NCBI GenBank assembly: GCA_028687645.1
Contig: JAQTZQ010000009.1
Location: forward strand, 1-50,158
From: Rhodocyclaceae bacterium
GTDB lineage: Bacteria; Pseudomonadota; Gammaproteobacteria; Burkholderiales; Rhodocyclaceae
Length of the DNA: 50,158 bases
Reading direction: 5' to 3'
Part shown: in pieces, positions 4,054-50,075 of the stretch
Numbering within the stretch: the stretch's first letter is position 1
Layout of the letters: every line of letters starts with the position of its first letter
Notes under the pieces: model-generated
Told to the model about the DNA's origin: nothing
The model's input: only the letters and a program-made list of their open reading frames with translations
Database searches by the model: none
Made by a program: the position numbers and the translations under genes

Positions 4054-5142
4054 ATGCAACGCCGACATTTCCTCATTGCATTAGCCGCCTGGCGCGGCCT
4101 CTTGCCCAGCTCCGCTGCGGCGGTCGACTTTGCCCCGGTAGTACCGGGTCGCCGTTTGGTCTTCCCGGACGACTTTGGTGCACATCCTGATTTCAGAACT
4201 GAATGGTGGTACGCCACCGGCTGGCTGAAGCGACCGAATGCTCAGCCGCTGGGCTTTCAGATCACCTTTTTTCGCGTGCGAACCGGAATCGGCGAAAGCA
4301 ACGCCAGCCGCTTTGCCCCACGTCAACTGATGCTCGCCCATGCCGCCATTGCCGACCCGGAATATGGCCGTTTGCGCCACAGCGAACGGACTGCCCGCGT
4401 TGGCTTCGGCCACGCCGGCTTTACGCTGGGGCGCAGCGAAGTGTGGATCGGCGACTGGCGCCTGACTCAACAGGAAAACTCGCAAGGCAACCGTTATCAG
4501 GCACGCGTTCACGGCGAGGATTTTTCCTACGATCTCGCCTTGGACGCCACCGCCCCACCGTTGCTCAACGGTCGCGATGGCTTCAGCAGCAAGGCGGCTG
4601 ATCCGCGCCATGCGAGTTATTACTACAGCCGGCCGCAACTGGCGGTGAGCGGGTCGCTGTCGTTGCAGGGCCGTGCTGAAGCAGTCAACGGCCATGCCTG
4701 GCTCGATCACGAATGGTCGAGCGAACTGCTGCCCGACGGGGCGCAAGGCTGGGATTGGGTCGGCATCAATCTCGCCGACGGCAGCGCACTGATGGCCTTT
4801 CGCTTGCGCGATACCAGTGGCAACCGGCAGTGGGCGGCGGCTTCGTTACGGTCAACCGGAAAAATCGATCAAATTTTTACCCCGCAAGAAGTCAATTTCT
4901 CCCCGCTGCGCCGCTGGCGCTCACCGCGCACCGGCATTGAATACCCCGTCGCCTGGCGGCTGCAAATTGGCCAACGCGTGTTCGAGCTCAGCCCGCTGCT
5001 TGATGATCAGGAGCTGGATAGTCGCCGCTCGGTGGGCACGGTGTATTGGGAAGGTGCCATTCGCGTCAGCGAAAACGGCCAGCCAGCCGGTGAGGGTTAC
5101 CTTGAACTGGCCGGCTATGGCGAGAAAATTCGGGTTGGCTAA
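4054..5142 (+). CDS. AttH/CrtC-like lipocalin-domain protein, exported
   Basis: A 362-residue protein starting directly after the permease stop (TAA then ATG), so translationally linked to the ABC exporter. The N-terminus (MQRRHFLIALAAW) has a twin-arginine-like pair and a hydrophobic stretch ending SSAAAVDF, consistent with export. The family hallmark TEWWY comes early (about residues 49-53), followed by GFQITFFR, and later by WLDHEW and GWDWVGINLADGSALMAFRLR, which belong to the two-domain lipocalin family of AttH and carotenoid 1,2-hydratase-like proteins. These genes often follow a LolD-like ATPase and FtsX-like permease, as here. The biochemical role is not established, and the carotenoid-hydratase label should not be taken literally. 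A USS-like repeat copy lies inside the gene at 4845-4878, encoding LRSTGKIDQIF. Confidence 0.85.
   Translation: MQRRHFLIALAAWRGLLPSSAAAVDFAPVVPGRRLVFPDDFGAHPDFRTEWWYATGWLKRPNAQPLGFQITFFRVRTGIGESNASRFAPRQLMLAHAAIADPEYGRLRHSERTARVGFGHAGFTLGRSEVWIGDWRLTQQENSQGNRYQARVHGEDFSYDLALDATAPPLLNGRDGFSSKAADPRHASYYYSRPQLAVSGSLSLQGRAEAVNGHAWLDHEWSSELLPDGAQGWDWVGINLADGSALMAFRLRDTSGNRQWAAASLRSTGKIDQIFTPQEVNFSPLRRWRSPRTGIEYPVAWRLQIGQRVFELSPLLDDQELDSRRSVGTVYWEGAIRVSENGQPAGEGYLELAGYGEKIRVG
4845..4878 (+). repeat. USS-like repeat copy 1
   Basis: Core GTTACGGTCAAC (exact), then an A tract (AAAAA) and, one turn later, AAATTTTT. Inside the AttH-like gene. Confidence 0.75.
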
Positions 5143-5240
5143 AAGAAGGCAAGGAAGCTCAGCTAAAATGCATTGGCATTACACCCAAGCCGGGAGCCGG
5201 TGTGCTATCGGCTGTGCTTGCCGCCACCAAGGATTGAGAT

Positions 5241-7052: not shown

Positions 7053-7073
7053 TCGTTTTATAAGGATTTCACC

Positions 7074-7292
7074 ATGCAAGCCATTCGTTTTGAAGCCACC
7101 GTCGGGAATGACCACGTTATTCATATTCCCGCACCTGAATTGCCAGCCGGCACACTGGCCGAGGTCATTGTGCTGGTGCACAGTCGCCCGGAGCCGCAGC
7201 ACGCCGACGTCACACAATATTTTGGCCAGTTTGTGCGCTTCGATAGCCTGACTGAGCTCAATCAGCACATGGATACCCTCCGGGAGGATTAA
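7074..7292 (+). CDS. Putative antitoxin of the downstream PIN-domain toxin
   Basis: A 72-residue protein with an AAGGAT ribosome-binding site before the ATG. The N-terminal half (HVIHIPAPELPAGTLAEVIVLV) reads as short beta strands of the kind seen in small antitoxins with a swapped-hairpin or similar DNA-binding fold. The C-terminal part (FDSLTELNQHMDTLRED) is a likely helix that could wrap the toxin. It ends 2 bases before the toxin start. The assignment rests mainly on size and position directly before a PIN gene. I cannot place it in a named antitoxin family. By analogy with VapB-type proteins it would neutralise the toxin and may repress its own transcription, but no operator is evident. 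Confidence 0.65.
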   Translation: MQAIRFEATVGNDHVIHIPAPELPAGTLAEVIVLVHSRPEPQHADVTQYFGQFVRFDSLTELNQHMDTLRED

Positions 7293-7294
7293 GC

Positions 7295-11744: not shown

Positions 11745-13807
11745 ACCTCTTATATTTTCGCCACCCCGCCGGATTTCTGCTCGGCCTGTTGTTTTGCGCT
11801 GCCAGCGCCTTCAGTGCGACTGATCCGGACCTGCTGCTCGACGTTTCGCTTGATCCACAGTCCCGACAATTCAAGGCCAGCGCCGAGTTGCAACTAACGG
11901 CACGCAGTTTCCGTTTTCTGCTGCATGAATCCTTGCATGTGACCCGCGCCCTGGTCGGCGATCAAATGGTCACCACAGAACGCAGTGGTGGCCCCAAGGG
12001 TTACAAGCAATGGAATATTCACCTGACCAAGGCCAATCAGAAGGTCGTCATCCACTATGAAGGGCAGTTGCCGGCGCTTGAACGCGACCGCGATCACCGC
12101 AGCGTACTCGGCGGCATGCCGCCGATGGCCGCCCCCGAGGGCAGTTTTTTATCCTCCGGCAGCGGCTGGTATCCACGCCCGGCTGATTTGTTCTCCTATC
12201 GGGTCAAACTCGCCGTTCCTTACGGTCAACGCGCTTTAGTGGCCGGAAAACGCCTTGCCGAAAGCGTCCCGACAGGCGCTGGAGAGAGCTATCGGGCGAG
12301 CTTTGAATTCACCCAGCCAAGCGATGGCATCGACCTGATGGCCGGGCCGTGGGTGGTGCGTGAAAAGACCGTCAAGCGTGGTGCCCAACCGCCACTCCAC
12401 CTGCGCACCTTCTTCCCGGCGGATCTCGACGCCCTCCCCGGCCTGGCGCAAGCCTATCTTGACGACACCGCAACCTACATCGCCCGTTACAGCCGCGACA
12501 TCGGCGCCTATCCATACAGCGAATTTTCCATCGTCGCCAGCCCGCTGCCCACCGGCTTTGGCATGCCGACGCTGACCTATCTCGGGGCCGAGGTTTTGCG
12601 CCTGCCCTTCATCCGCAAAACCTCGCTCGGCCATGAAATTTTGCACAACTGGTGGGGCAACGGCGTTTATGTCGATTACGAGCGCGGCAACTGGTCGGAA
12701 GGTTTGACCACCTTCATGGCCGACTACGCTTACAAGGAAGACGAATCGGCTACTGCCGCCAGCGACATGCGCCTCGCCTGGCTACGCGATGCCGCCGTTT
12801 TCGCCGGCGAAAAACCCGGCTCATTGCGCGACTTTCGCTCACGCGCCAACGCCGCCGGTGCCACCGTTGGCTACGGTAAGTCAGCGATGGTCTTCGTCAT
12901 GCTGCGTGATCGGCTGGGCAAAAAGGTGTTTGACCAAGGCATCCGCAACTTCTGGACCGCACAGCGCTTCAAAGTGGCCAGTTGGGACGACTTGCAGGCG
13001 GCTTTTGAAAGCGCTTCAGGGGAAAAGCTTGGCAGCCTCTTCGCCCCCTGGCTTGATCAGCAAGCCTTGCCGGCGGTCAGCATTGCCCACGCTGAAAGCA
13101 GTCGCAGCGGCAAACAGCACCTACTCAATCTCACCTTCAACAAACAGGATGCCAACCTACCCTTGCGCCTGCCGCTTGAAATCAAGGGTGCCGGCAAACG
13201 TCAAACGCATTGGGTAGACCTCGCCGCCAGCAGCAACAGCGCCACGCTCAAGCTTGCCTTTAAACCACAAAGCCTGCGCCTTGACCCGGAAATGCGCGTC
13301 TGGCGCCGGCTCGAAGCCAGCCAACTACCGCCGATCCTGCGCCAGTGGATGGCCGCCAAAGCACCGCTGCTGATCAATGTTGCCCGCGCGCCAGAAGCAA
13401 ATGTTGCGGTCAACGCGCTTTCCGAGCGTATTTTTGAGCTCAGCCCCAAGCCGCTCGCCGCCGACCAGCTCACCACCGCCCTCAAGGGCAAAGCCCCGGT
13501 TTTGCTGGCCGGCACGCATGCCGAAATCGATCAAGCTTTGGCCAGCGCCGACCTGCCTGCGCGTCCGGCCAGTTTGCGGGACAAAGGCAGTGCTCAGGTC
13601 TGGACCATGGCGGACAAACCCTTCCAGCTAGCCATCATCTCGGCACGCGACGCGGCAGCCCTCAACGCCCTGCAACGCGGACTGCCCCACTACGGCGGGC
13701 AAAGCTGGCTAATTTTTGACCAGGGGCGCGCCGTTGGCAAAGGCATCTGGCCGGCCAGCATCCCTGAAATAGCCATCCTCAGTGCCGCCCCCAAGGACAA
13801 AAAATGA
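11741..13807 (+). CDS. M1-family (gluzincin) metallopeptidase, exported
   Basis: A 688-residue protein with a signal peptide (FLLGLLFCAASAFSATDP). Zinc-binding HEILH is at residues 298-302 and is followed by NWWGNGVYVDY and GNWSEG, whose Glu320 is the expected third ligand. This group resembles M1 aminopeptidases, but the usual substrate-recognition motif GxMEN upstream of the zinc site is replaced by GFGMPTLTY, so free amino-terminus recognition may differ. The C-terminal 300 residues look beta-rich and carry no second catalytic motif. It overlaps the flanking genes by ATGA on both sides. Two USS-like repeat copies lie within it (12220-12250 and 13403-13435). It probably acts in the periplasm; substrate unknown. 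Confidence 0.87.
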   Translation: MNLLYFRHPAGFLLGLLFCAASAFSATDPDLLLDVSLDPQSRQFKASAELQLTARSFRFLLHESLHVTRALVGDQMVTTERSGGPKGYKQWNIHLTKANQKVVIHYEGQLPALERDRDHRSVLGGMPPMAAPEGSFLSSGSGWYPRPADLFSYRVKLAVPYGQRALVAGKRLAESVPTGAGESYRASFEFTQPSDGIDLMAGPWVVREKTVKRGAQPPLHLRTFFPADLDALPGLAQAYLDDTATYIARYSRDIGAYPYSEFSIVASPLPTGFGMPTLTYLGAEVLRLPFIRKTSLGHEILHNWWGNGVYVDYERGNWSEGLTTFMADYAYKEDESATAASDMRLAWLRDAAVFAGEKPGSLRDFRSRANAAGATVGYGKSAMVFVMLRDRLGKKVFDQGIRNFWTAQRFKVASWDDLQAAFESASGEKLGSLFAPWLDQQALPAVSIAHAESSRSGKQHLLNLTFNKQDANLPLRLPLEIKGAGKRQTHWVDLAASSNSATLKLAFKPQSLRLDPEMRVWRRLEASQLPPILRQWMAAKAPLLINVARAPEANVAVNALSERIFELSPKPLAADQLTTALKGKAPVLLAGTHAEIDQALASADLPARPASLRDKGSAQVWTMADKPFQLAIISARDAAALNALQRGLPHYGGQSWLIFDQGRAVGKGIWPASIPEIAILSAAPKDKK
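12220..12250 (+). repeat. USS-like repeat copy 2
   Basis: Exact core TTACGGTCAAC, then GCGCTTT; the distal tract is AAAA. Inside the M1 peptidase gene. Confidence 0.6.
13403..13435 (+). repeat. USS-like repeat copy 3
   Basis: Core GTTGCGGTCAAC (one change), then GCGCTTT and distal ATTTTT at the standard spacing. Inside the M1 peptidase gene. Confidence 0.7.
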
Positions 13808-14539: not shown

Positions 14540-14573
14540 GTTGCGGTCAACCGCGTTTTTCCGTCGATTTTTT
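14540..14573 (+). repeat. USS-like repeat copy 4
   Basis: Core GTTGCGGTCAAC, then CGCGTTTTT and distal GATTTTTT. Intergenic, after the SOUL operon terminator. This 285-bp gap (14455-14739) holds only the terminator and this copy. Confidence 0.75.
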
Positions 14574-16085: not shown

Positions 16086-16119
16086 TATTACGGTCAACCG
16101 CAAAAAACCGCATTTTTTT
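16086..16119 (+). repeat. USS-like repeat copy 5
   Basis: Exact core TTACGGTCAAC, then CGCAAAAAA and TTTTTTT. Here the tracts can pair as a hairpin. Intergenic, 24 bases after the lipase-like gene. Confidence 0.75.
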
Positions 16120-16967: not shown

Positions 16968-17000
16968 GTTACGGTCAACCCGCTTTCCATGGACTTTTTT
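16968..17000 (+). repeat. USS-like repeat copy 6
   Basis: Exact core GTTACGGTCAAC, then CCGCTTT and distal TTTTTT. Between the convergent cupin and UspA genes; the last bases overlap the UspA stop codon. Confidence 0.75.
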
Positions 17001-19355: not shown

Positions 19356-19714
19356 AGTTAGGGTGACTTTGCTTGTAACAAGCGGGAACAAAACGGGGGG
19401 CCAACGCCCAACCCTGTCAATGAAAACTCAGGCGGCTAGCCGGCCAGGCGAGGAGAGCTCAGGAACAGGATTGAGCAAACGTGGCAGCACCACAGAGGGC
19501 GCAAGCTTGGGTGATGAAAGGCGAGGCACTGACGCCAGCACCAATGTAGCGACTAGCGTCGTGCTTGAGTAACGACAAGCATGCTTGAACCTGACCTACA
19601 AAGGGCGCGAATTGTGCACCGCACCATTAAATCCGTCAATCACCTTGTTACGGTCGACCGGGAAAAGACCCCGTTTTTTACGCCTTCAAACTGGCCGGTG
19701 TCCCCAGGGCAATC
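19356..19714. other. 359-bp intergenic region upstream of the SulP operon
   Basis: No credible gene. It should hold the SulP-UspA promoter (minus strand), but no clear -35/-10 pair was found. It contains several inverted repeats of the pentamer GCTTG/CAAGC: GCTTG-TAA-CAAGC at 19371-19383, CAAGCTTG at 19502-19509, GCTTG at 19563, and CAAGCATGCTTG at 19576-19587. These may be regulator binding sites. A USS-like repeat copy lies at 19647-19679, 35 bases from the end of the DUF2189 gene. Confidence 0.5.
19647..19679 (+). repeat. USS-like repeat copy 7
   Basis: Core GTTACGGTCGAC (one change), then CGGGAAAA and distal TTTTTT. Intergenic, between SulP and DUF2189 genes. Confidence 0.7.
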
Positions 19715-21596: not shown

Positions 21597-21629
21597 GTTA
21601 CGGTCAACGGCGAAAATGCCTCAATTTTT
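21597..21629 (+). repeat. USS-like repeat copy 8
   Basis: Exact core GTTACGGTCAAC, then GGCGAAAA and distal AATTTTT. Intergenic, beside the htpG terminator. Confidence 0.75.
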
Positions 21630-21680: not shown

Positions 21681-23597
<1,917 letters not shown>

Positions 23598-28652: not shown

Positions 28653-29443
28653 AAGACTCTTTGTTTGCCGCCCTGAGTGCAGCCCTTGCGGCTGAAAAAA
28701 TCGAGCAAAAAACGGCGTTGACCGTAACACTTTCCGAAAACTGGGCTGCTGGGCGATTGCTGGTCGATATCCCGGCCAACCCGCAGCTCATTTGTGGTCG
28801 CCCGGCCAAACCTGAACTGGTCGCCCCCGGCCAGGTGCAACAACGCAACCCGCAAAGCCCCGAAGGCCGCGCCCGGCTGCTGCATGCCATTGTTCACATC
28901 GAATTTTCAGCGATCAATCTGGCGCTTGATCACGCGGCGCGCTTCCCGGGCATGCCGACCCAGTATTACGCCGACTGGATTGGCGTTGCCGCCGAGGAGG
29001 CCTACCACTTCCGCATCCTGCGCGAGCGCTTGCAAAGCCTGGGCCATGATTACGGCGATTTCCCCGCCCATGCCGGGCTGTGGGAGATGGCCGAAAAAAC
29101 GGCCGGCGACGTGCTGGCGCGCATGGCCCTGGTGCCGCGCCTGCTCGAAGCGCGCGGGCTGGATGCGACGCCACCGATACAACGCAAGCTGGAACAGGTC
29201 GGCGACCATGAATCAGCTCGTCTTCTCGATATCATCCTGCGCGATGAAATCGGCCACGTCGGGCTGGGCGACCAATGGTTCCGCCGACTTTGCGCCGAGC
29301 GCGGGCTAGATGCTGAAAATACATTTCGCCAACTGCTGATTGACTTCAAAGCCCCGTGGCCGAGCGCGCCGATGAACGAAAGCGCCCGCCTCGCAGCCGG
29401 CTTCACGCTCGCCGAACTGGCGGCGCTGCGCAAAAAGGAGTAA
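28649..29443 (+). CDS. DUF455 ferritin-like protein
   Basis: A 264-residue protein; the ATG overlaps the aldo/keto reductase stop. It is a likely four-helix di-iron protein. Metal-ligand-type motifs are AIVHIEFSAINLALDHAAR, GVAAEEAYHFRILRERL, WEMAEKTAGDVLARMALV and ILRDEIGHVGLGDQWF, giving Glu/His pairs on successive helices as in DUF455 and MiaE-like proteins. The reaction is not known. A USS-like repeat copy in the opposite orientation lies near the 5' end (28695-28728), encoding EKIEQKTALTVT. The upstream frame (28382-28648) is a shadow of the reductase gene. Confidence 0.85.
   Translation: MKDSLFAALSAALAAEKIEQKTALTVTLSENWAAGRLLVDIPANPQLICGRPAKPELVAPGQVQQRNPQSPEGRARLLHAIVHIEFSAINLALDHAARFPGMPTQYYADWIGVAAEEAYHFRILRERLQSLGHDYGDFPAHAGLWEMAEKTAGDVLARMALVPRLLEARGLDATPPIQRKLEQVGDHESARLLDIILRDEIGHVGLGDQWFRRLCAERGLDAENTFRQLLIDFKAPWPSAPMNESARLAAGFTLAELAALRKKE
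28695..28728 (-). repeat. USS-like repeat copy 10
   Basis: On the minus strand: exact core GTTACGGTCAAC, then GCCGTTTTTT and distal GATTTTTT. Inside the DUF455 gene. First copy in the opposite orientation. Confidence 0.75.
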
Positions 29444-32603: not shown

Positions 32604-32962
32604 AGCGGCACCAAAACCTGTTGCTCCTGATCGCCGTCGTGCTGCTTGCTGTGCTGCCGCTGTGGCTGGTGCAAAAGCCGGCAGCGGATGCTGACGGCAA
32701 ACCGGCCGAGATTTTTGCTGGCGCCGACAACAAAGCCAGAGATCTGATCGGCGTCATCGCGCCCGATTACCGACCATGGTTTGAACCACTCCTCGAACCG
32801 GCCAGCGGCGAGATATCCTCACTGCTATTCGCCCTGCAGGCCGCGTTGGGCGCCGGCTTCATCGGCTATTACCTCGGCGCAGCGGTGACCCGCGAAAAAA
32901 TACAGCGCGAAATGGCCAAACAAATGGCGGAACAACAGGAAAAGCCAACCCGTGCTGATTGA
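32600..32962 (+). CDS. cbiN: Cobalt transporter accessory protein CbiN
   Basis: A 120-residue protein with two membrane segments ([18 protein letters not shown] and [21 protein letters not shown]) flanking a periplasmic loop that contains [12 protein letters not shown] and [12 protein letters not shown], the conserved CbiN sequence. It helps load cobalt into CbiM. The C-terminal tail of about 25 charged residues is longer than usual. The start overlaps the cbiM stop by four bases; the end overlaps cbiQ by 11. Confidence 0.95.
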
Positions 32963-33692
32963 GCAGTCGGCTTACAGCAATCGCTGGCGCAGCGTTTCGC
33001 CAGCGGCCAAAGGGCTGTTTGCCGCCTGCGGCTTTGTCGCAATTTTTGCCGCCAAATCGCCGTTGACCGCAACACTTGTCGCCGGACTCTTGTTGCTGGT
33101 CACCCTGATTGGCGCCGGCATCACGCTCGGCCGCTATTTGCGCGCCGCTGCCCCGGCCCTGTTTTTTCTGGCGATGGGCAGCCTGTCGCTGGCCTTTGCC
33201 GTTGATGTCGGCGATAACCGACCGCTGCTGCACCTGGCCCCGAACGGCCTGGCCAAATTGGTTGAAGTCGGTACGCGCTCGCTCGGCGCACTGGCCGCCC
33301 TGCTCTTTCTGGTCCTGACAACGCCCTTGGTTGACCTGATCGCCCTGCTCCGTAGCCTCAGAACACCTGAGCTGCTGCTCGAAATTATGGTCCTTTGCTA
33401 CCGCATGCTTTTTGTCTTTTCCGCAGCTGTGCATGAGACCTGGAACGCGCAATCGGCCCGCCTTGGCTATGCCAGCGCCCGGTTAACCATCCGCTCGCTG
33501 GGCGGCCTCACAGCTAATTTGACGCTGCAAGTCTGGCAGCGCGCCCACGCCCTGCATCTGGCGGCCCAGGCACGCAACAACGATGGTCCCTTGCGTTTTC
33601 TCGAAGCGAATTTTGCCAATACGGGCCGCGATTGCCGCGTTGCCGGCGTCGCTGGTGCCGGTTTGATCGCCCTTGCCTGGGGACTGGCATGA
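32952..33692 (+). CDS. cbiQ: Cobalt ECF transporter T component CbiQ
   Basis: A 246-residue membrane protein with a GTG start at 32952, inside cbiN. It has about five membrane segments and the coupling-helix motifs TRSLGALAALLFLVLTTP and SARLGYASARLTIRSLG, near the ARG-type signatures that contact the ATPase. It transmits ATP-driven movement from CbiO to CbiM. A minus-oriented USS-like repeat copy lies near the 5' end (33041-33073). Its stop overlaps cbiO (ATGA). Confidence 0.93.
   Translation: MLIEQSAYSNRWRSVSPAAKGLFAACGFVAIFAAKSPLTATLVAGLLLLVTLIGAGITLGRYLRAAAPALFFLAMGSLSLAFAVDVGDNRPLLHLAPNGLAKLVEVGTRSLGALAALLFLVLTTPLVDLIALLRSLRTPELLLEIMVLCYRMLFVFSAAVHETWNAQSARLGYASARLTIRSLGGLTANLTLQVWQRAHALHLAAQARNNDGPLRFLEANFANTGRDCRVAGVAGAGLIALAWGLA
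33041..33073 (-). repeat. USS-like repeat copy 11
   Basis: On the minus strand: core GTTGCGGTCAAC, then GGCGATTT and distal AAAAATT. Inside cbiQ. Confidence 0.65.
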
Positions 33693-34543
33693 GCAACACA
33701 CTGCTCGAACTAAGCCACATCAGCTATCGCTACCCAGATGGCAGCATCGGCCTCGATGACTGTTCGCTGCGCATCGCGCGCGGTAGCCGCAATGTACTGA
33801 TCGGCGCCAACGGCTCGGGCAAGACTACCCTCTTTCAACACAGCAACGGCCTCTTGCGGGCACAGGCGGGTGTTGTGCGTTATGACGGCAAGGAGATCAA
33901 CTATGGCCGGGCCGGCCTGCGCGACTTGCGCGGCAAGGTCGGCATGGTTTTCCAGAACCCGGACCACCAGCTATTTTCTGCCAGCGTGCAGGAAGACGTC
34001 TCCTTCGGCCCGCTCAATCTCGGGTTGGACATGGCAACGGTACGCCAGCGCGTGGCTTCGTCCTTGCAGACAGTCGGCATGACGGAGCACGCCGACAAGG
34101 CGGTGCACAACCTGAGTTTCGGTCAAAAAAAGCGCGTCTGCATTGCCGGCGTCTTGGCCATGGAACCGGAACTGCTGGTGCTCGACGAGCCAATGGCCGG
34201 CCTTGATCACGCCATGCAAAAAGAGCTGATGGCGGTACTCGACGGCCTGCACCAACGCGGCATCACGCTGCTGTTGGCCACCCACAATATCGACTTTGCG
34301 TATCGCTGGGCCGAGCACATTCACCTGATGGCTGCTGGCCGCTGCACTGCCTCACTGAACGCGGCCGAACTCGGCGAACACGCCACCGCACTTACTGCGG
34401 TCGGCCTGCCCTTGCCGGAAGTCATCAAGCTGCATCGCGGGCTGGTCGAGCGCGGCATGGTGCCAGCCACCCCCGCTCCCCGGTGCGCCAACAGCCTGCT
34501 CGGCTTGCTGACAACACTGAATATTGCAAAGGAAATCCCATGA
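33689..34543 (+). CDS. cbiO: Cobalt ECF transporter ATPase CbiO
   Basis: A 284-residue ABC ATPase from the ATG at 33689, overlapping the cbiQ stop. Walker A GANGSGKTT is at 39-47, Q-loop MVFQNPDHQLFS follows, the signature is LSFGQKKRV, Walker B LLVLDEPMAGLD, and the switch histidine is in ATHNIDF. QNPDxQLF is typical of ECF ATPases. Only one ATPase gene is present, so CbiO works as a homodimer. The last bases form ATGA with a 16-codon open frame leading to cobM. Confidence 0.95.
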   Translation: MSNTLLELSHISYRYPDGSIGLDDCSLRIARGSRNVLIGANGSGKTTLFQHSNGLLRAQAGVVRYDGKEINYGRAGLRDLRGKVGMVFQNPDHQLFSASVQEDVSFGPLNLGLDMATVRQRVASSLQTVGMTEHADKAVHNLSFGQKKRVCIAGVLAMEPELLVLDEPMAGLDHAMQKELMAVLDGLHQRGITLLLATHNIDFAYRWAEHIHLMAAGRCTASLNAAELGEHATALTAVGLPLPEVIKLHRGLVERGMVPATPAPRCANSLLGLLTTLNIAKEIP

Positions 34544-34590
34544 AAAATTGCCGCAAATTGCGCGTTGACCATAACACTTTCATTTTATGA
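34540..34590 (+). CDS. 16-codon open frame linking cbiO and cobM
   Basis: MKNCRKLRVDHNTFIL, starting in an ATGA overlap with the cbiO stop and ending in an ATGA overlap with the cobM start. AAAGGA 6 bases before the ATG is a good ribosome-binding site, while cobM itself has none of note. This would give unbroken translational coupling from cbiO to cobM. The peptide has no recognisable function. Most of it is encoded by a USS-like repeat copy (34543-34575). It may be chance. Confidence 0.4.
   Translation: MKNCRKLRVDHNTFIL
34543..34575 (-). repeat. USS-like repeat copy 12
   Basis: On the minus strand: core GTTATGGTCAAC (one change), then GCGCAATTT and distal AATTTTT. Between cbiO and cobM, inside the 16-codon open frame. 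Confidence 0.7.
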
Positions 34591-37649: not shown

Positions 37650-38789
37650 ATGACTGAAACCAAAGTCCGTAAAGGCGACGGCCGGCGTGAGCGCGGCAAC
37701 CGTACCGGTTTCACCACCGGCGCCTGCTCGGCGGCGGCGGCCAAGGCAGCGACGCTTGGCCTGCTCAATAGCGAGGTCGCGGATAGCGTTGTCTGCCGTC
37801 TGCCGAATGGCAGCGAGGTTACTTTTGCCGTGACCGATGGCTACGTCGAAGAGGTCGCCGGACTAGCCCATGCGGTGATCGTCAAGGATGCCGGCGATGA
37901 CCCGGATGCCACGCATGGCGCGCACATGACGGCCGATGTTCGCATCCTCAAGCATCGCGCCGGAGAAGTGCTGCTCAAGGGTGGTTTCGGGGTTGGCGTC
38001 GTCACCAAGGACGGCCTCGGGCTGGAAGTTGGCGGCCCGGCGATCAACCCGGTGCCGCGCCGCAACATCATCGACAACGTGCGGGCGGTGGCGGGTGAAC
38101 TGCTCGATCACGATGGGCTGGAAGTGACCATTTCGGTGCCGCTCGGCGATGAAATGGCCAAGAAGACGCTGAATGCCCGACTGGGCATTCTCGGCGGCAT
38201 TTCCATCCTCGGCACTACCGGCATCGTGCGGCCCTATTCGACTGCCGCTTTCCGCGCCAGCGTCGTGCAGGCGGTGGATGTGGCGGCGAAACAGGGCCAG
38301 ACCACGGTAATTTTCACCACCGGCGGGCGTACTGAAAAATTCGCCATGCGGCAGTTGCCTGAACTGGATGAATCCTGCTTTGTGCAGATGGGTGACTTTG
38401 TGAAGGCGGCTTTCACCTCGGCGGTCAAACGTGAATTCCCCAAGGTTTACGTGGGTGCCATGGTCGGCAAGCTGACCAAAATGTGTCAGGGGTTGTCCGT
38501 TACCCACGCCTGGAAGGCCGAGATCGACCGCGACATCCTCGCTGAATCAGCCCAGGAAGTCGGCGCGCCGCCCGATCTGGTGGAAGAAATCCGCGCCGCC
38601 GAAACCGCCCGCTTCGCGGCTGAAAAACTGTCAATTTTAGGGTTGACCGTAGCATTCCACCGGGCGCTCGCCGGCAAGGCGATTCGCAGCCTGAAAACCT
38701 GTTACCCGGGCAATTACCACCTGAGCATCCTCGTTTGCGATTTCGAGGGGCAGTTTATTTGTCGATTGGATGAAGATGAAGTCCTGTGA
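37650..38789 (+). CDS. cbiD: Cobalt-precorrin-5B C1-methyltransferase CbiD
   Basis: A 379-residue protein. The family opening is GNRTGFTTGACSAAAAKAA at about residues 16-34. Later it has GVGVVTKDGLGLEVGGPAINPVPR, GISILGTTGIVRPYS and TTGGRTEKFA. CbiD replaces CobF of the aerobic route and does C1 methylation in the early-cobalt pathway. No CobF or CobG is in the operon, so the anaerobic-type chemistry is used. A minus-oriented USS-like copy lies in the 3' half (38623-38653), encoding LSILGLTV. Confidence 0.95.
   Translation: MTETKVRKGDGRRERGNRTGFTTGACSAAAAKAATLGLLNSEVADSVVCRLPNGSEVTFAVTDGYVEEVAGLAHAVIVKDAGDDPDATHGAHMTADVRILKHRAGEVLLKGGFGVGVVTKDGLGLEVGGPAINPVPRRNIIDNVRAVAGELLDHDGLEVTISVPLGDEMAKKTLNARLGILGGISILGTTGIVRPYSTAAFRASVVQAVDVAAKQGQTTVIFTTGGRTEKFAMRQLPELDESCFVQMGDFVKAAFTSAVKREFPKVYVGAMVGKLTKMCQGLSVTHAWKAEIDRDILAESAQEVGAPPDLVEEIRAAETARFAAEKLSILGLTVAFHRALAGKAIRSLKTCYPGNYHLSILVCDFEGQFICRLDEDEVL
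38623..38653 (-). repeat. USS-like repeat copy 13
   Basis: On the minus strand: core CTACGGTCAAC, then CCTAAAATT and distal TTTTT, two bases closer than usual. Inside cbiD. Confidence 0.6.
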
Positions 38790-40970: not shown

Positions 40971-41002
40971 ATTGTTACGACCACAGAAGCTACGGCTGGC
41001 CC

Positions 41003-41034
41003 TAGGGTCAACCGCAAAAAACACCCAAAAATTA
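41003..41034 (+). repeat. USS-like repeat copy 14, degenerate
   Basis: Core CTAGGGTCAAC, then CGCAAAAAA and a distal AAAAATTAAAA. Intergenic, between cobI and cbiG. The only plus-oriented copy accepted right of 28 kb. Confidence 0.5.
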
Positions 41035-43362: not shown

Positions 43363-45282
43363 ATGCAGCAACCGCGCGCCCGCTTTCCCCGGCGAACCAT
43401 TTCCCTTGTCCTGATTTCCCTTTTTGCCACGGCGAATGTCCTTGCCGAAGAACAGACCCTGCGCGACACAGTGGTAACGGCAACGATGTCCGATCATGAG
43501 TCGCGAACCGCGCCAGCGTCGGTCACCGTAATACCCCGCCAGGAGATCGAGGAACGCAATGCGACTGACCTGCTGGATATTGTTCGCGGTGCGCCGGGCG
43601 TGACGCTCACCGGGCGCCAGGTGGGTGGCCGCAAGACAATTGCCTTGCGCGGGCTGGAGGGTAAACATACGCTGACGCTGATCGACGGCCGGCGCATTTC
43701 GCCTACCGATGATGTGGTTGGTCATTCCGACTATCAGTATGGCTGGCTCCCCGTCTCCGCCATCGAACGGGTAGAAATCATTCGCGGCCCGATGTCCACC
43801 CTCTACGGCTCAGAAGCCCTGGGCGGTGTCGTCAATCTGATCACCCGGCAACCCCGCGATCGCTGGATCGGTTCGCTGATGTTATCGGGCAGCCAGTTGA
43901 CCGGGAGCGATGACGGCGACGGCTGGCAAGGTTCTATCTTTGCCGCCGGGCCGCTTGGTGAGCGCGTTACTTTGCGCGTCAATGCCGAATCATCCAACCG
44001 CGACGCCATTGCCGAGAAGGAAGATGAGCGTTACTCCGAGATCGAGGGCCGCAAGGCACAAAACTACGGCATTGGTGGAACAATCAAGCTGACCGATGCG
44101 CAAAGTATCGATTTTCAGTGGCAAGGTGGCGATGAAGTCCGGCGCTACGACGATGTGTCATCCGCCGGTAAGTCCTACGAAAATCGCTACGATATCGAGC
44201 GTCGGCAGGCAAGCATTGCCTGGAAAGGGGATTTTGGCCAGTGGCGCGCCCAGGCTCGAATGTATAACAGCGAAATCGATATCCAGAACCGGCGTACCAA
44301 TGGCGTCGCGGCGACCCGTCCACAAAACCTGAAGGACGAGGTGATTGATGGTTTTGCCGCCCTCAAGATGAAAAATCAAGTACTGACCGTCGGCGGTGAG
44401 TACCGCGTTGAAACGCTGGAAAATAATGGCTTGATTGGTGGCAAGGACGATGCCACGCACAAGGCGCTGTTCATTCAGGATGAGATTTCACTCAGCGATA
44501 ACCTGGTGTTGACGGCTGGCCTGCGTGGCGACAATCACGAACGCTTCGGCTTTGAAGCCAGCCCACGCGTCTATCTGGTTTGGGAGGCGACACCCGCACT
44601 GGTGATCAAGGGCGGCTACGGCCACGCCTTCAAGGCGCCGACGCTCAAGCAAAGCTCTCCGAGCTATATCGGTGCTGAGGGGCCGCACACCTTCATGGGC
44701 AATGCCGATATCCAGCCCGAAAGCTCTGATTCACTCGAAATCGGTGCGGACTGGAAACAGGGGTCGATCAATCTATGGTCAACGCTGTTTCACACCAAAA
44801 TTGATGATCTGATCACCTATAAATTACTCAAGGTCTCCGGCATTCGCCGCACCTATTTGTACGACAACGTGGATAAAGCGACGATCAACGGCCTGGAGTC
44901 GGGCATAGGCTGGATGATCACCCCCGGTCTGAAATGGAATACCAATCTGACCTTCCTCGACACTGAGGATGAAACAACCGACAAGGATCTTGCCTATCGG
45001 CCTGAACTGGCGCTCGCCTCCAGCCTCGACTGGCAGGGGGGCAACGGCTGGAGTGCCCGCGGCATGGTCGAGTATTTTGGACAGCAATACGACAACAGCG
45101 GAGCACGCCTGCCGTCCTACGCGCTATTGAATGTCAGCGTCGGTAAAAAAATTGGTGAGCACCTCAGCGTGCGCGCCGGAATCAATAACCTGACCGATGT
45201 TCGCCTGGCTGAAAAATCGCCCGATTTTGGCTATGCCGAAATTGGCCGAAATATTTACCTGACCCTGCGTACCGACTTTTAA
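43363..45282 (+). CDS. TonB-dependent outer-membrane receptor
   Basis: A 639-residue receptor with a signal peptide (ISLVLISLFATANVLAEEQ). A TonB-box-like DTVVTATM is followed by the plug domain (VTVIPRQEIEERNATDLLDI, LRGLEGKHTLTLIDGRR, VERVEIIRGPMSTLYGSEALGGVVNLITRQP). The barrel has GHAFKAPTLKQSSPSYIG, related to the FRAP-type motif, and ends on an aromatic residue (YLTLRTDF). Size and plug resemble CirA/BtuB-type receptors. Placed behind a Fur-like box and before a periplasmic CobN homologue, it could import a siderophore, haem or a metal-tetrapyrrole; cobalamin is less likely because no riboswitch precedes it. AGGCC lies near the ATG. Confidence 0.92.
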   Translation: MQQPRARFPRRTISLVLISLFATANVLAEEQTLRDTVVTATMSDHESRTAPASVTVIPRQEIEERNATDLLDIVRGAPGVTLTGRQVGGRKTIALRGLEGKHTLTLIDGRRISPTDDVVGHSDYQYGWLPVSAIERVEIIRGPMSTLYGSEALGGVVNLITRQPRDRWIGSLMLSGSQLTGSDDGDGWQGSIFAAGPLGERVTLRVNAESSNRDAIAEKEDERYSEIEGRKAQNYGIGGTIKLTDAQSIDFQWQGGDEVRRYDDVSSAGKSYENRYDIERRQASIAWKGDFGQWRAQARMYNSEIDIQNRRTNGVAATRPQNLKDEVIDGFAALKMKNQVLTVGGEYRVETLENNGLIGGKDDATHKALFIQDEISLSDNLVLTAGLRGDNHERFGFEASPRVYLVWEATPALVIKGGYGHAFKAPTLKQSSPSYIGAEGPHTFMGNADIQPESSDSLEIGADWKQGSINLWSTLFHTKIDDLITYKLLKVSGIRRTYLYDNVDKATINGLESGIGWMITPGLKWNTNLTFLDTEDETTDKDLAYRPELALASSLDWQGGNGWSARGMVEYFGQQYDNSGARLPSYALLNVSVGKKIGEHLSVRAGINNLTDVRLAEKSPDFGYAEIGRNIYLTLRTDF

Positions 45283-45423: not shown

Positions 45424-48400
45424 ATGAACCTCCTTCGCTTCGCCTGCCTGCTTGGCGCGCTGTGCTTATGCCTGCCCGCGCTGGCTGAAAACATCCTGAT
45501 CGTCGCCACCACGCCGGTACCCCCCGGCAAGTTCCGGACAATCTCAGAAATTGGTCAAAAATACGGGTTGACCGTGGAAGCCTGTTTTATCGAGCGCCTG
45601 AGCCCCGATCAAAGCAGCAATCTGCTGCAAAACCGCGATCTCGTCATTTTCGACACCGCGCGCAGTCACATGCAAGATGCGGTTAAAGGCAAACTGGGCA
45701 CAGCGCTCGATGGCCTGCAAACCCCGCATCTGTGGATGAAGGCAGAAGGCCCGGCGGGCAGCGGCCTGCCCAAGGATATTGCCACCACGCTACACGCCTA
45801 CTACACCAACGGTGGCCGAGCCAACTACGAGGGATTTTTCGCCACACTGGCCGCCCAGTTGCGCGGCCAGCCCTTGCCGACAATCGAGGCACCCTTTGTC
45901 TTTCCGGAAGAAGCGATCTATCACCCGCAGGCGCCGCTGCGGGTATTTGCCACGGCTGCCGAGTATTTCCAATGGCGCGGCATTCCCCTCGACCAGCGTC
46001 CACCGACCATCGCCATCGCCCTGCATCAGATCTACATCGGTGCCGAGCAAACGGCCTTTATTGATGCCCTGGTCGCCCGCATCGAAGCCGCAGGAGCCAT
46101 CGCCCTGCCCTATTACGCCGGCGTCCTCGGGCCACACAAAAATTTGCTGACCATCGAAGGCAAACCGATTGCCGATGCGGTCATCAATACCCAGATCGTT
46201 CTCGACCCCGAGGGGCGGCGCAAGGAACTGAGCGAACTCGGTATTCCGGTCATTCAGGCGCTGGCCTACCGCAAGGGCGACGAAGCCGCCTGGCGCGCCG
46301 ACCCGCAGGGCGTGCCGCTGATCGATGTGCCGTTTTACCTGGCTCAGGGCGAATATGCCGGCATTGTCGACGCCATCGTTGCCAGCACCCAAGACCGTGC
46401 CAGCGGCGACATTGTCGTCATCCCGGAACAAGCTGCCGCTGTCGTCAACAAGGCACTGAATCTGGTCCGCCTACAGCGTTTGCCGAACGCCGAAAAGAAG
46501 GTGGCCATGCTGTTCTGGAACTACCCGCCGGGCGAAAAAAATCTTTCCGCGTCATTCATGAACCTCCCCAAAAGCATGGAGGCCACCCTCAAGGCGCTGA
46601 AGTCTGCTGGTTACAGCACGACTGGCGAATCAGAAGTCATTCTCATCAACTCGCTGCAACGCCTGCTCGCCCCCTTCTACCGCGATGGCCAGCTCGAAGG
46701 CCTGTTGCGCGACGGCCTGGCCGAACGCCTGCCGGTCGCCACCTACAAAGCCTGGCTGCAGCGCCAGCCGCCAGCCGTCCAGAAGGAGTTGCACGAGCGC
46801 TGGGGCGATCCGGAAAAATCGGCCATGGTCATCGTCGACCGTGGCGAAGCGGTCTTCGTCATGCCGCGCATGGCCGTCGGCAAGGTCATCTTCAGCCCCC
46901 AAGCGCCACGCGGCGAACGCTGGGAAGATAAGGAAAAAGCGCTCTACCACTCGACCAAGGCGGTGCCCTCGCACTTCTACCTCGCCCACTACCTGTGGCT
47001 GCGTGAGCAGTTCAAGGCCGACGCGCTGGTGCACTACGGCACGCACGGCTCGCAGGAATGGCTGCCCGGCAAGGAACGCGGCCTGGCGGTCAGCGATTAC
47101 CCGCTGCTCGCCGTCGGCGACGTACCGGTCGTCTATCCCTACATCGTCGACAATATTGGCGAAGCGCTGCAAGCCAAGCGACGCGGTCGGGCGGTCATCG
47201 TCAGCCACCAAACACCGCCCTTCGCCCCGGCCGGGCTGCACGAAACGCTGACCCAGATCCACGACCTGCTGCACCAGTGGATGGCGCAGGACGACGGTGC
47301 GGTCAAGGACAAGCTTGCGGTTGACCTGAAAAAGCGGGTCAAAAAGGAACATATTGACCGCGACATGGGCTGGTCTACGACCCGTATTGACCGTGAATTC
47401 CGCCCCTTCATCGACGAACTACACAACCACCTGCACGAACTGGCACAGACGGCGCAGCCGCTTGGCCTGCACACCTTCGGCACACCACCGCTGGAAAAAC
47501 ACCGCCTCGGTACCGTGCTGCTGATGCTCGGCAAAGACTTCGGCGAAGCGGCACTGCGTCATGCCGGCGTCAAGGAAGACGACCTCGACGAGTTGTTTGT
47601 TGGCGATTACACCAAACTGACCGAATCGCCGCCCTTCCGCCTGCTCGCCGACCTCATCACTGGCAACACTGCCCCGCCAGTCGACCCCAAGCTCGCCGCG
47701 CAGCTCGAACAAGGCCGCCGCTGGTATGCCGACCTCGGCGCTCAGGGCGAAATCGCCGGCCTGCTCTCGGCCCTGGCCGGGCAGCATCGACCGACCTCCT
47801 ACGGCGGCGACCCGATCAAGAACCCGGACGCCCTACCGACCGGGCGCAACCTGTATGGCTTCGACCCCTCGCGGGTGCCGACCCAGCAAGCCTGGGAAGC
47901 CGGCAAGGACGCCGCCGAAGCGCTGATCGCCGCGCAGACAGCCAAAACCGGTCGCCCTCCGAAGAAGCTCGCCTTCTCGCTGTGGTCAGTCGAAACCATG
48001 CGCCATCAAGGCATCCTCGAAGCGCAGGCGCTGTGGACCATGGGCGTCGAGCCGGTGTGGGACGCCGGCGGCCGGGTCATCGACGTCAAGCTGGTGCCGC
48101 GCGAGCAACTTAAACGACCGCGTGTCGACGTCGTGCTCTCGGCCACCGGCCTCTACCGCGATCATTTCCCGAACGCCATGAAGCAGTTGGCCAAGGCCGT
48201 GCAACTTGCCGCCCGCGCCATGGAGGCTGACAACCCGCTGTACGCCAACAGCCGGGCCATCGCAGAACGGCTGATCGCTCAGGGCATTCCGGAAAAAGCT
48301 GCGCAGAAGGCGGCCGAGACGCGCATTTTCTCGTCCGCATCCGGCAACTACGGCACCGGGCTGGACGACGCCGCGCTGGCTAGCGATACCTGGAAAAGCA

Positions 48401-49407
48401 AGGGCGAAGCCGACAAAAAGCTGGCCAGACTCTACCTCTCAAAAATGCAATTCGCCTACGGTGCAGACGAAGCCGATTGGGGAGCGCAAGGCGTGGTCAC
48501 AAACTCGGTCGGCACCGATGGCAAAGCTGGCAGGAATATCAATCTCTACGCCGAGCATCTGAAAGGCACCGAGGGTGCCGTGCTGGCCCGTACCTCCAAC
48601 CTCTACGGCATGTTGACTACCGACGATCCCTTCCAATATCTCGGTGGCATCGGTGCGGCGGTACGGGCGCTCGACGGCAAAGCGCCCGAGCTCTACATCG
48701 CCAACCTGCGCAACAGCGGGAGCGATGGCAAGGGCGGGCGGATCGAGGGCGCTGCCCAGTTCCTCGCCAAAGAGCTGGCCACCCGCAACTTCCACCCCGG
48801 CTACATCCAGGGCCTGATGGCCGAAGGCTATGCCGGCACACTGCAAGTGCTCGACGGCATCAACAACTTCACCGGCTGGACCACCGTCTCGCGCGAAATC
48901 GTCCGTGACGACCAGTGGCAGGCATTCGTCGATGTTTACGTCCGTGACAAGCACAAACTCGGCCTGAAGAACTGGTTCGAGAAAAACAACCCGCATGCGC
49001 TGGCCCAGAGCATCGAGAAAATGCTGGAAATGGCCCGCCATGGCTACTGGCAGGCGGATGCCAAAACGGTCGCTGAACTCAAGCAGCGCTACCGCGATCT
49101 GGCCAAACGCTACGACGTCAAGAGCAACAATGCCGCTTTCGAAAAATTTGCTGCCGCCGGTTTTGGCTTGGCCGCCAAACTGCCAGCAGCACCTTCAATC
49201 GCGCCGACGCGACCACAGACAGCAGCCGATTTGGTCACGCCGCCTGCGCCACCGGCACCACCCGTGATCAAGGGCATGGTGCTGGAGAAGCTAGACAAGC
49301 AAACGCCAGCGCCCCCACCGTTCGCCCTGGCGGGCGGCGCGCTGTTACTGCTGACGACAATGGGTGGTGCCCTGAGCGCGGCGCGCCGACAGCGGAGAAG
49401 CGCATGA
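45424..49407 (+). CDS. CobN-like chelatase, exported and membrane-anchored (possible HmuS-type)
   Basis: A 1327-residue protein homologous over nearly its whole length to the large subunit of cobaltochelatase (CobN/ChlH/BchH clan): HYGTHGSQEWLPGKERGL, VVYPYIVDNIGEALQAKRRG, VVLSATGLYRDHFPNAM, IFSSASGNYGTGLDDA and NLYGMLTTDDPFQYLGG. Unlike cytosolic CobN it has a clear signal peptide (LLGALCLCLPALA, then EN) and a C-terminal Pro-rich linker, membrane helix (FALAGGALLLLTTMGGAL) and basic tail, so the catalytic part should face the periplasm. No CobS/CobT ATPase is nearby, and CbiX in the preceding operon already serves cobalt insertion. Between two TonB receptors and with a Fur-like box, it may be a haem de-chelatase like HmuS. 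That is inference. Confidence 0.88.
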   Translation: MNLLRFACLLGALCLCLPALAENILIVATTPVPPGKFRTISEIGQKYGLTVEACFIERLSPDQSSNLLQNRDLVIFDTARSHMQDAVKGKLGTALDGLQTPHLWMKAEGPAGSGLPKDIATTLHAYYTNGGRANYEGFFATLAAQLRGQPLPTIEAPFVFPEEAIYHPQAPLRVFATAAEYFQWRGIPLDQRPPTIAIALHQIYIGAEQTAFIDALVARIEAAGAIALPYYAGVLGPHKNLLTIEGKPIADAVINTQIVLDPEGRRKELSELGIPVIQALAYRKGDEAAWRADPQGVPLIDVPFYLAQGEYAGIVDAIVASTQDRASGDIVVIPEQAAAVVNKALNLVRLQRLPNAEKKVAMLFWNYPPGEKNLSASFMNLPKSMEATLKALKSAGYSTTGESEVILINSLQRLLAPFYRDGQLEGLLRDGLAERLPVATYKAWLQRQPPAVQKELHERWGDPEKSAMVIVDRGEAVFVMPRMAVGKVIFSPQAPRGERWEDKEKALYHSTKAVPSHFYLAHYLWLREQFKADALVHYGTHGSQEWLPGKERGLAVSDYPLLAVGDVPVVYPYIVDNIGEALQAKRRGRAVIVSHQTPPFAPAGLHETLTQIHDLLHQWMAQDDGAVKDKLAVDLKKRVKKEHIDRDMGWSTTRIDREFRPFIDELHNHLHELAQTAQPLGLHTFGTPPLEKHRLGTVLLMLGKDFGEAALRHAGVKEDDLDELFVGDYTKLTESPPFRLLADLITGNTAPPVDPKLAAQLEQGRRWYADLGAQGEIAGLLSALAGQHRPTSYGGDPIKNPDALPTGRNLYGFDPSRVPTQQAWEAGKDAAEALIAAQTAKTGRPPKKLAFSLWSVETMRHQGILEAQALWTMGVEPVWDAGGRVIDVKLVPREQLKRPRVDVVLSATGLYRDHFPNAMKQLAKAVQLAARAMEADNPLYANSRAIAERLIAQGIPEKAAQKAAETRIFSSASGNYGTGLDDAALASDTWKSKGEADKKLARLYLSKMQFAYGADEADWGAQGVVTNSVGTDGKAGRNINLYAEHLKGTEGAVLARTSNLYGMLTTDDPFQYLGGIGAAVRALDGKAPELYIANLRNSGSDGKGGRIEGAAQFLAKELATRNFHPGYIQGLMAEGYAGTLQVLDGINNFTGWTTVSREIVRDDQWQAFVDVYVRDKHKLGLKNWFEKNNPHALAQSIEKMLEMARHGYWQADAKTVAELKQRYRDLAKRYDVKSNNAAFEKFAAAGFGLAAKLPAAPSIAPTRPQTAADLVTPPAPPAPPVIKGMVLEKLDKQTPAPPPFALAGGALLLLTTMGGALSAARRQRRSA
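45547..45577 (-). repeat. USS-like repeat copy 15
   Basis: On the minus strand: CCACGGTCAAC, then CCGTATTTTT and distal AATTTC. Inside the CobN-like gene, coding for IGQKYGLTV. Confidence 0.55.
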
Positions 49408-50075
49408 AGACGCGTCGAAAGCCACTCATTAGCGTGCTGGCCGCATTGCTTGCCACCAGCGTAACAGCTGAAGAAGCCACGACATTACAGACCATCACGG
49501 TCACCGCCACTGCTGACGCGGATAGCGAACGCCAAACCGCCGTTGCGCAGAAGACCGTGATAGACCGCGCCGAAATCGAGGCTTTAGGCGGGTTGACCGT
49601 CGGCGAGGTAATTCGCAAGCTGCCCGGTATCGAGGCCGGTGCCCATAGCGGCGACGGCGGCACGAGCGCCAACGCGCGCGGCATGGGACGCGACTCGGTG
49701 CAATTCCTGGTCGATGGCGAACGCCCTTCGGCCAACGCCCGCTACGCGCTGACCACGGTTAGCCGGCTGCCTTCCGGTGAGCTGGAACGCATCGAAATCC
49801 TGCGCGGCGCCTCGGCAGAATTTGGCGGCAGCGCGCCAGTCAGCGTCAATCTGATCATGAAAAAGGCCCGGCCACAAAACTCGACCGCCCTGAAAGCTGC
49901 TGCCGGCCTGCGCGGCGATGAGCCAAACGGCCAGTTCACCCTCAGCCAGGGCGGTGGCGACAAAGGGTTTTCGTGGATCGTGCCGCTCACTGTCAACCAC
50001 CACGCCATGCCACTGGAGAAGGCCACGACTCGCGGTAATTGTCAAACTAGTTGTCGCCTAAAGTTTTGCATTTAG
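49404..50075 (+). pseudogene. TonB-dependent receptor, interrupted by an insertion sequence
   Basis: It starts in an ATGA overlap with the CobN-like gene. The first 205 or so residues are normal: signal peptide (LISVLAALLATSVTAEE), TonB-box-like TITVTATA, plug domain with ARGMGRDSVQFLVDGERPS, ERIEILRGASAEFGGSAPVSVNLIMKKA, and the start of the barrel. After about 50035 the frame runs into unrelated sequence (NCQTSCRLKFCI) and stops, far short of a barrel. An insertion-sequence end seems to lie here. The gene is therefore broken in this strain unless the rest lies beyond the window. Confidence 0.8.
49572..49601 (-). repeat. USS-like repeat copy 16, weak
   Basis: On the minus strand: CGACGGTCAAC, then CCGCCTAAAG and distal GATTTC. 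Inside the second TonB receptor gene. The weakest of the accepted coding copies. Confidence 0.4.

What the first reader, a model, noticed from the sequence alone, without database searches (positions are those of the whole stretch)
4845..49601. Dispersed USS-like repeat: possible DNA uptake sequence of a Rhodocyclaceae bacterium
Seen: at least 16 sites share the core TTACGGTCAAC (six exact, the rest mostly one to three changes), followed by two G/C bases, a 3-6 base A/T tract at about +5 to +9 and a second one at about +17 to +22. An exact 11-mer is expected about 0.02 times on both strands of 50 kb at equal base composition; six are present. Copies lie between genes and inside genes, in frame-compatible form, so they were not inserted as blocks. 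The tracts may be A-then-T or T-then-T, so hairpin formation is not what is conserved. Known: the Pasteurellaceae uptake signal has a 9-base core plus two A/T tracts about one helical turn apart. Inference: this is an analogous uptake signal with a new core; alternatives are a nucleoid-protein site or a chromosome-segregation motif.
Basis: partly seen in the sequence, partly recalled or inferred. Interest (0 to 1): 0.88.

Follow-up and report, generated by a model that had tools for sequence, protein, structure and literature searches.

The report
DNA uptake signal in Dechloromonas-type bacteria
Many Dechloromonas-type water bacteria carry hundreds of copies of one short DNA tag, varying between species like a dialect, that looks like the self-recognition tag two other bacterial families use to choose which DNA to take up.

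Summary
The repeat is real and genome-wide: TTACGGTCAAC occurs 346 times in this 4.28-Mb genome, its reversed word twice. It is a unit of about 32 bases: core TT[A/G]CGGTC[A/G]AC, A/T tract at 16-20, second A/T tract at 27-32. A pattern for the unit gives 821 matches here (reversed: 2); 40 of 76 genomes of the genus (inferred Dechloromonas/Azonexus) have at least 100. Outside it no genome in two surveys (393 and 241, overlapping by 7) exceeds 6. Relatives use other dialects of the core. At orthologous places motif-rich relatives keep the core; motif-poor ones have the same DNA without it. Copies show no transcription or replichore strand bias. Some form inverted pairs locked at 44-47 bp. This fits a DNA uptake signal like the Pasteurellaceae USS, in a lineage where my searches found none described. 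Uptake is untested and no receptor was identified: ComEC, DprA and ComP/FimT-type pilins occur in motif-rich and motif-poor genomes alike. A chromosome-organising protein site is the main rival.

The parts
4846..4877 (+). site, exact core with both A/T tracts, inside gene 4054-5142
12220..12251 (+). site, exact core, inside Peptidase_M1-like gene 11741-13807; in G042 the core reads CTACGGTCAAC, in motif-poor G092 the gap-free orthologous place lacks it
13404..13435 (+). site, core TTGCGGTCAAC, same gene; kept in G042, absent in G092
14541..14572 (+). site, core TTGCGGTCAAC, intergenic; core kept in G042
16088..16119 (+). site, exact core, intergenic, 26 bases after ORF 14740-16062; its tracts can pair as a terminator-like stem
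16969..17000 (+). site, exact core, between genes, touching the end of gene 16999-17862
19648..19679 (+). site, core TTACGGTCGAC, intergenic
21598..21629 (+). site, exact core, intergenic beside the ORF 21681-23597 (HtpG by recall)
28696..28727 (-). site, exact core, inside gene 28649-29443, opposite strand
33041..33072 (-). site, core TTGCGGTCAAC, inside gene 32952-33692, opposite strand
34543..34574 (-). site, core TTATGGTCAAC with tracts, at the end of gene 33689-34543
38621..38652 (-). site, core CTACGGTCAAC with tracts, inside gene 37650-38789, opposite strand
26192..26223 (-). core with one mismatch, tracts only just pass: weak or chance
811..842 (-). core with one mismatch, first tract missing: weak or chance
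3467..3498 (+). degenerate site, 2 mismatches with both tracts
41002..41033 (+). degenerate site, 2 mismatches with both tracts
44773..44804 (+). degenerate site, 2 mismatches with both tracts
45546..45577 (-). degenerate site, 2 mismatches with both tracts

Best explanation
The repeat is a self-specific DNA uptake signal. Inferred mechanism: a surface DNA receptor, most likely a minor pilin of the type IV pilus, recognises the core in double-stranded DNA outside the cell; the two A/T tracts downstream, about one helical turn apart, help bend or kink the DNA for passage through the outer membrane; the strand then enters through ComEC and recombines with help from DprA. Biased uptake of tagged fragments lets mutations toward the local consensus spread, so copies accumulate in place across the genome and each species drifts to its own dialect. 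Shown here: genome-wide excess, the core-plus-two-tracts unit, dialects, retention or absence at orthologous sites, no transcription or replichore strand bias, genus restriction within the genomes surveyed, ComEC and DprA present. Inferred: that the motif drives uptake, that a pilin is the receptor, and what the tracts do.
For: Excess: 346 exact vs 2 reversed; 821 vs 2 for the unit. Architecture from sites chosen by core alone. Dialects: own TT[AG]CGGTCAAC, G042 CT[GA]CGGTCAAC, G018 mostly [AG]CGGTCGAC, with A/T excess at the same places in logos chosen by core alone (strong in G042; first tract weak in G018) and no such excess in motif-poor G046. Orthologous places: 27 pairs with motif-rich relatives, core identity 0.815 vs flank 0.749 (p 0.0004); 7 pairs with two motif-poor relatives, 0.558 vs 0.792; rich vs poor p 4.5e-6; the reversed word shows no such difference. 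In genes 41 on the gene's strand, 39 opposite. G-rich strand vs other 80:64, 47:53, 28:31. Own spacing CV 0.80 vs 0.95 random, 14 of 2000 simulations as low. Convergent core pairs at 44-46 bp: 5 in own; at 45-47 bp: 3 in G018 (0.13 and 0.25 expected for 44-47 by my arithmetic). ComEC in 71 of 76 and DprA in 75 of 76 genus genomes. A 33.7-kb insert in comEC of motif-rich G002 has 0 sites by a relaxed rule. Like traits are stated for USS and DUS (PMC1626085 passages).
Against: No uptake or transformation experiment was run, and my searches found none for these genera. ComEC, DprA, GspH/FimT and ComP_DUS proteins occur in motif-rich and motif-poor genomes alike, so nothing found tracks the motif. 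ComEC matches are split or interrupted in some motif-rich genomes too (G002, G018, G008) and DprA was not found in G018. Consensus is weaker than in USS/DUS genomes: 44 exact vs 62 one-mismatch copies, where USS/DUS genomes have many more perfect copies than one-mismatch ones. Density is about 0.3 per kb, not close to one per kb. In G042 per-stretch counts are not more even than random (chi2/df 1.20; own 0.40, G018 0.62), and in own close neighbours are not rarer than random (12 gaps under 300 bp vs 13.3). 11 of 27 rich pairs have gaps in or beside the motif, against 2 of 35 in the control. G042 and G103 show no locked pairs.
Confidence: 0.75

Rival explanations
1. The repeat is the binding site of an abundant chromosome-organising (nucleoid-associated or domain-forming) protein that reads the core and the phased A/T tracts.
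For: Phased A/T tracts bend DNA (recalled); about 0.3 sites per kb, spread somewhat evenly in this genome; equal orientation.
Against: The core differs between species of one genus and 27 of 76 genus genomes have under 20 matches, with at least six gains or losses on the htpG tree; that is unexpected for a chromosome organiser (inference). An ori-ter trend was not tested and no candidate protein was sought.
Confidence: 0.13
2. A recombination hotspot (Chi-like) or a polar segregation word (KOPS-like) read by an enzyme on the chromosome.
For: Non-palindromic, over-represented, dispersed.
Against: Such words are strand-biased (recalled); here 80:64, 47:53 and 28:31 relative to the G-rich strand. 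Two spaced A/T tracts are not part of such words (recalled).
Confidence: 0.04
3. A transcription element: regulator site or intrinsic terminator family.
For: Intergenic excess (17 of 106 vs 4.9% of random places); some copies can form terminator-like stems.
Against: 80 of 106 copies lie inside genes, 41 on the gene's strand and 39 on the other; A-then-T tract order, which a stem needs, is not commoner outside genes (11 of 35) than within (35 of 109).
Confidence: 0.04
4. Remnants of a short mobile repeat (MITE-like) copied into place.
For: One consensus in hundreds of places.
Against: No shared sequence beyond about 38 bases; orthologous DNA of motif-poor relatives aligns without a missing unit (5 of 7 gap-free); 32 of 41 same-strand copies in genes share one reading frame.
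Confidence: 0.01

Closest known systems
Pasteurellaceae uptake signal sequence (USS; Hin and Apl types)
   Same: Short core followed by two A/T segments about a helical turn apart; no orientation bias; some close inverted pairs; copies within and between genes; origin by mutation, not insertion; dialects between subclades (PMC1626085 passages). [G/A]CGG in the core beside the USS inner core GCGG. The second tract of the G042/G103 dialect (AAaattsAAA) resembles the Apl segment 3 AAAATTTTGCAAAT quoted there.
   Different: Core is 11 bases, TT[A/G]CGGTC[A/G]AC, not AAGTGCGGT or ACAAGCGGT; first tract starts 4-5 bases after the core; betaproteobacterial host; lower density and weaker consensus.
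Neisseriaceae DNA uptake sequence (DUS) and its dialects
   Same: Betaproteobacteria; dialects among relatives; hundreds of copies; ComP_DUS-family pilins present in the genus.
   Different: DUS is a continuous word of up to about 13 bases with inner CTG and no flanking A/T segments (PMC12616744 introduction); no core similarity.
Chi and KOPS (recalled)
   Same: Dispersed non-palindromic words.
   Different: No replichore strand bias here; extended unit with A/T tracts.

Membership tests
DNA uptake signal, as a functional class | Motif greatly over-represented genome-wide | tested here: met
   346 exact vs 2 reversed; 821 vs 2
DNA uptake signal, as a functional class | No orientation bias to genes or replichores | tested here: met
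   41:39 in genes; 80:64, 47:53, 28:31 vs G-rich strand
DNA uptake signal, as a functional class | Copies arise by mutation in place, not by insertion | tested here: met
   Orthologous alignments; gaps in 11 of 27 rich and 2 of 7 poor pairs, none the size of the unit among those printed
DNA uptake signal, as a functional class | Dialects among relatives | tested here: met
   Own, G042 and G018 differ in unguided word counts and core-chosen logos; G103 like G042 and S06 like own in tract-chosen logos of 22 and 27 sites (S06 loci were fetched by the own motif)
DNA uptake signal, as a functional class | More regular spacing than random | tested here: inconclusive
   Own genome yes; G042 chi2/df 1.20, no
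DNA uptake signal, as a functional class | Competence machinery in the carrier | tested here: met
   ComEC, DprA, type IV pilins in this genome; PilQ, PilT and ComEA were not looked for
DNA uptake signal, as a functional class | Motif increases DNA uptake | not testable with these tools
   Needs an experiment
Pasteurellaceae USS | Core AAGTGCGGT or ACAAGCGGT in a Pasteurellaceae host | tested here: not met
   Core TT[A/G]CGGTC[A/G]AC; related named records are Rhodocyclales
Pasteurellaceae USS | Two A/T segments downstream, about one turn apart | tested here: met
   Positions 16-20 and 27-32, centres about 11.5 bases apart; 12 in Hin-type USS
Pasteurellaceae USS | More perfect than one-mismatch copies | tested here: not met
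   44 exact vs 62 one-mismatch in 422,537 bases
Neisseriaceae DUS | Continuous word with inner CTG and no flanking A/T segments | tested here: not met
   Core CGGTC[A/G]AC with two tracts
Chi / KOPS | Strand bias along replichores (recalled) | tested here: not met
Mobile repeat (MITE) | Insertion as a unit at new places | tested here: not met

The most novel reading that the evidence does not exclude
A third, independently evolved family of self-specific DNA uptake signals, in Dechloromonas/Azonexus (environmental Rhodocyclales), with at least three species dialects, several gains or losses, and a core-plus-two-A/T-tract design that converged on that of the Pasteurellaceae, read by a diverging minor pilin that remains to be found.
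Probability: 0.7. Interest if true: 0.9.

Novelty: new variant of a known kind. Interest (0 to 1): 0.83.

Why it matters
[quoted passage not shown] Both are studied mainly as host-associated bacteria (recalled). A third case in free-living water and wastewater bacteria would show that sequence-specific DNA uptake is not tied to host-associated life. It would say that a core plus two phased A/T tracts is a design reached twice, which bears on how DNA is bent through the outer membrane. It also offers dozens of related species with dialects, gains and losses for finding the receptor by co-variation. The 40 motif-rich and 27 near-empty genomes of one genus make the question why uptake specificity comes and goes directly testable.

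Tried and rejected
Rejected: chance; compositional effect (reversed word as control); mobile repeat; terminator or regulator element; Chi/KOPS. Tried for a receptor or machinery that tracks the motif and failed: GspH/FimT, ComEC, N_methyl pilins in 15 of 76 genomes, with a capped list, DprA, tip pilin clusters of 35 loci, looked over without a formal test, ComP_DUS. A 149-aa pilin of this genome matches ComP_DUS at 6.9e-21, but matches as strong occur in motif-poor G021 and G043, while motif-rich G042, G103 and G083 have only weaker ones (2e-13 to 2e-10), so it is no proof; no ComP chain is named among its 24 PDB matches.

Literature: searches (0 papers; 2; 9; 34, 53, 45, 34 and 510 papers, of which 20, 20, 15, 15 and 15 were listed) showed no uptake signal in Rhodocyclales by title and abstract start. 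One search, a search for the words themselves, was seen for 15 of 510 only. Of papers I saw the PMC12616744 abstract and introduction, and found passages of PMC3630211, PMC2843746, PMC7811141 and PMC1626085. bioRxiv and most subscription journals are not in the library. Viral contigs hold 4 stretches with the strict pattern; not followed.

Limits: logos for this genome rest on 422,537 to 548,352 of 4,280,133 bases. The logos were chosen by the tracts, so only speak for the tracts. Gene calls come from a simple script that over-calls (94% coding). 'Motif-poor' means poor in this core; another core could be present. S06 loci were fetched by the motif itself, so they were left out; the 25 rich pairs included 3 of them. 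One search used a chosen part of the fetched loci; its poor set is 7 pairs from two genomes, its rich set mostly G018 (12) and G042 (9). The htpG tree used 34 of 76 genus genomes, none with 50-99 matches. The ori-ter distribution was not tested.
Full report
WHAT IS THERE. The window (G000:C42) holds six exact copies of TTACGGTCAAC and 14 with at most one mismatch; 100 shuffles give a mean of 0.45 and at most 3. In the whole genome (4,280,133 bases, 310 contigs) there are 346 exact copies, 186 forward and 160 reverse, against 2 of the word read backwards. Aligning 106 sites with at most one mismatch from 422,537 own bases, chosen by core alone, gives a unit of about 32 bases: weak A, T and G upstream, core TT[A/G]CGGTC[A/G]AC, a G/C-rich spacer, an A/T tract at 16-20, a G/C-rich spacer, an A/T tract at 27-32, and then background. 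Thirteen sites in the window pass a loose rule for core and tracts, one of them only just; the reversed window has none.

WHO CARRIES IT. The genus is inferred to be Dechloromonas/Azonexus. NCBI places Dechloromonas in Azonexaceae, Rhodocyclales. The pattern CGGTCRACNNNNWWWWNNNNNNNNWWW gives 821 matches in this genome. Of 76 genomes of the genus 40 have at least 100, 9 have 20-99 and 27 have fewer than 20, with a reversed control of 0-5. Of 393 genomes of the order outside the genus none exceeds 6. Of 241 genomes of the same family from 67 other genera, which include the seven such genomes, none exceeds 5.

DIALECTS. An unguided word count in 400 kb of G042 and 290 kb of G018 found related but different words; 400 kb of G046 showed none in its top list. 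Logos chosen by core alone: G042 CT[GA]CGGTCAAC with strong tracts at 15-20 and 26-31; G018, chosen by [AG]CGGTCGAC, with a weak first tract (A/T 0.53-0.57 at 16-19) and a clear second one (0.66-0.90 at 28-31); in motif-poor G046 the same core has no clear tracts. Logos chosen by core and tracts put G103 (22 sites) with G042 and the S06 MAG (27 sites, loci fetched by the own motif) with own. G046 still has 12 such sites in 483 kb against 1 in the control, perhaps relics.

EVOLUTION IN PLACE. Own sites were aligned with relatives' DNA that had not been fetched by the motif. In 27 pairs with motif-rich relatives the core is better conserved than the flanks (0.815 vs 0.749, p 0.0004). In 7 pairs with two motif-poor relatives it is worse (0.558 vs 0.792, p 0.016); the two sets differ at p 4.5e-6. 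The reversed word as control shows no such effect (35 rich and 18 poor pairs). In G018, 5 of the 11 own TCAAC sites read TCGAC at the same place with CGGTC kept. Gaps in or beside the motif: 11 of 27 rich and 2 of 7 poor pairs; in the control 2 of 35 and 3 of 18, so small gaps are commoner at motif sites. In the alignments printed they are short, partly offsetting, and never the size of the unit. On an htpG tree of 34 genomes (name of the gene recalled) the poor state forms one clade of seven plus scattered lineages, six changes in all; motif-poor G016 is the sister of motif-rich G091.

PLACEMENT. Of 106 sites, 80 lie inside genes (91.6% of random places do), 17 between genes (4.9% of random places) and 9 overlap an end; within genes 41 lie on the gene's strand and 39 on the other, and 32 of the 41 share one frame. 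Relative to the G-rich strand the counts are 80:64, 47:53 and 28:31 in own, G042 and G018. In own, gaps between sites are more even than random (CV 0.80 vs 0.95; 14 of 2000 simulations as low), though gaps under 300 bp are as common as expected; per-stretch counts in G042 are not more even than random. Convergent core pairs cluster at 44-46 bp in own (five of the six within 150 bp) and at 45-47 bp in G018 (three of eight), so that the two sites share their A/T tracts; G042, G103 and S06 have none in the sample. About 0.13 and 0.25 would be expected at 44-47 (my arithmetic). A 33.7-kb insert with a serine recombinase in comEC of motif-rich G002 has no site by the relaxed rule.

MACHINERY. ComEC is found in 71 of 76 genus genomes and DprA in 75 of 76; GspH/FimT-type pilins in 69 of 76 and ComP_DUS-type pilins in 70 of 76. 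None separates motif-rich from motif-poor genomes, so the receptor is unknown. ComEC matches are split or interrupted in motif-poor G034, G043, G017 and G006 and in motif-rich G002, G018 and G008. This genome has a 149-aa pilin that matches Pfam ComP_DUS at 6.9e-21.

READING. The traits match several of those stated for USS and DUS in PMC1626085 (passages): no orientation bias, some regularity, close inverted pairs, copies in genes and between them, origin by mutation, dialects between subclades. The design, core then two A/T segments about a turn apart, is that of the Pasteurellaceae USS; the core, its length and the distance to the first tract are not. [quoted passage not shown] my searches showed nothing for Rhodocyclales (also 9, 24, 46, 47, 65, seen in part). 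I therefore take it as a new variant of a known kind, at 0.75, pending an uptake experiment. The weaker consensus, the lower density, the missing receptor and the untested nucleoid-protein rival keep it from being higher.

Noticed in passing
G002:C33 about 109,600-143,300 (L340, L341); G043:C1 about 2,218,700-2,251,150: The comEC match is in two pieces about 33.7 and 32.5 kb apart, split at the same place (domain residues 26-29), in two genomes of the genus; in G002 the stretch between begins with a serine recombinase (Resolvase, Recombinase and Zn-ribbon domains). G018 and G017 matches begin at residue 27 and 26. comEC looks like an integration site.
   Followed up: partly
window 5241-10383: Type III restriction-modification-like pair (N6_N4_Mtase and ResIII) with a PIN-domain gene between them. 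None of the sites listed lies between 4877 and 12220, as if the island were recent; weak evidence alone.
   Followed up: partly
G540:C150:38771-41480: A genome of another genus with three matches in all has all three within 2.7 kb, as if one piece of DNA had come from a motif-rich relative.
   Followed up: no
G018 is also the one genus genome without a DprA match.
   Followed up: no
G034:C1:1959178-1959913: comEC match lies in two overlapping pieces on one strand in a motif-poor single-contig genome: a frameshift or a sequencing error.
   Followed up: no
L090, L105, L118: Three Snodgrassella records (Neisseriaceae by recall) each have one strict-pattern match; may be chance or one conserved place.
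   Followed up: no
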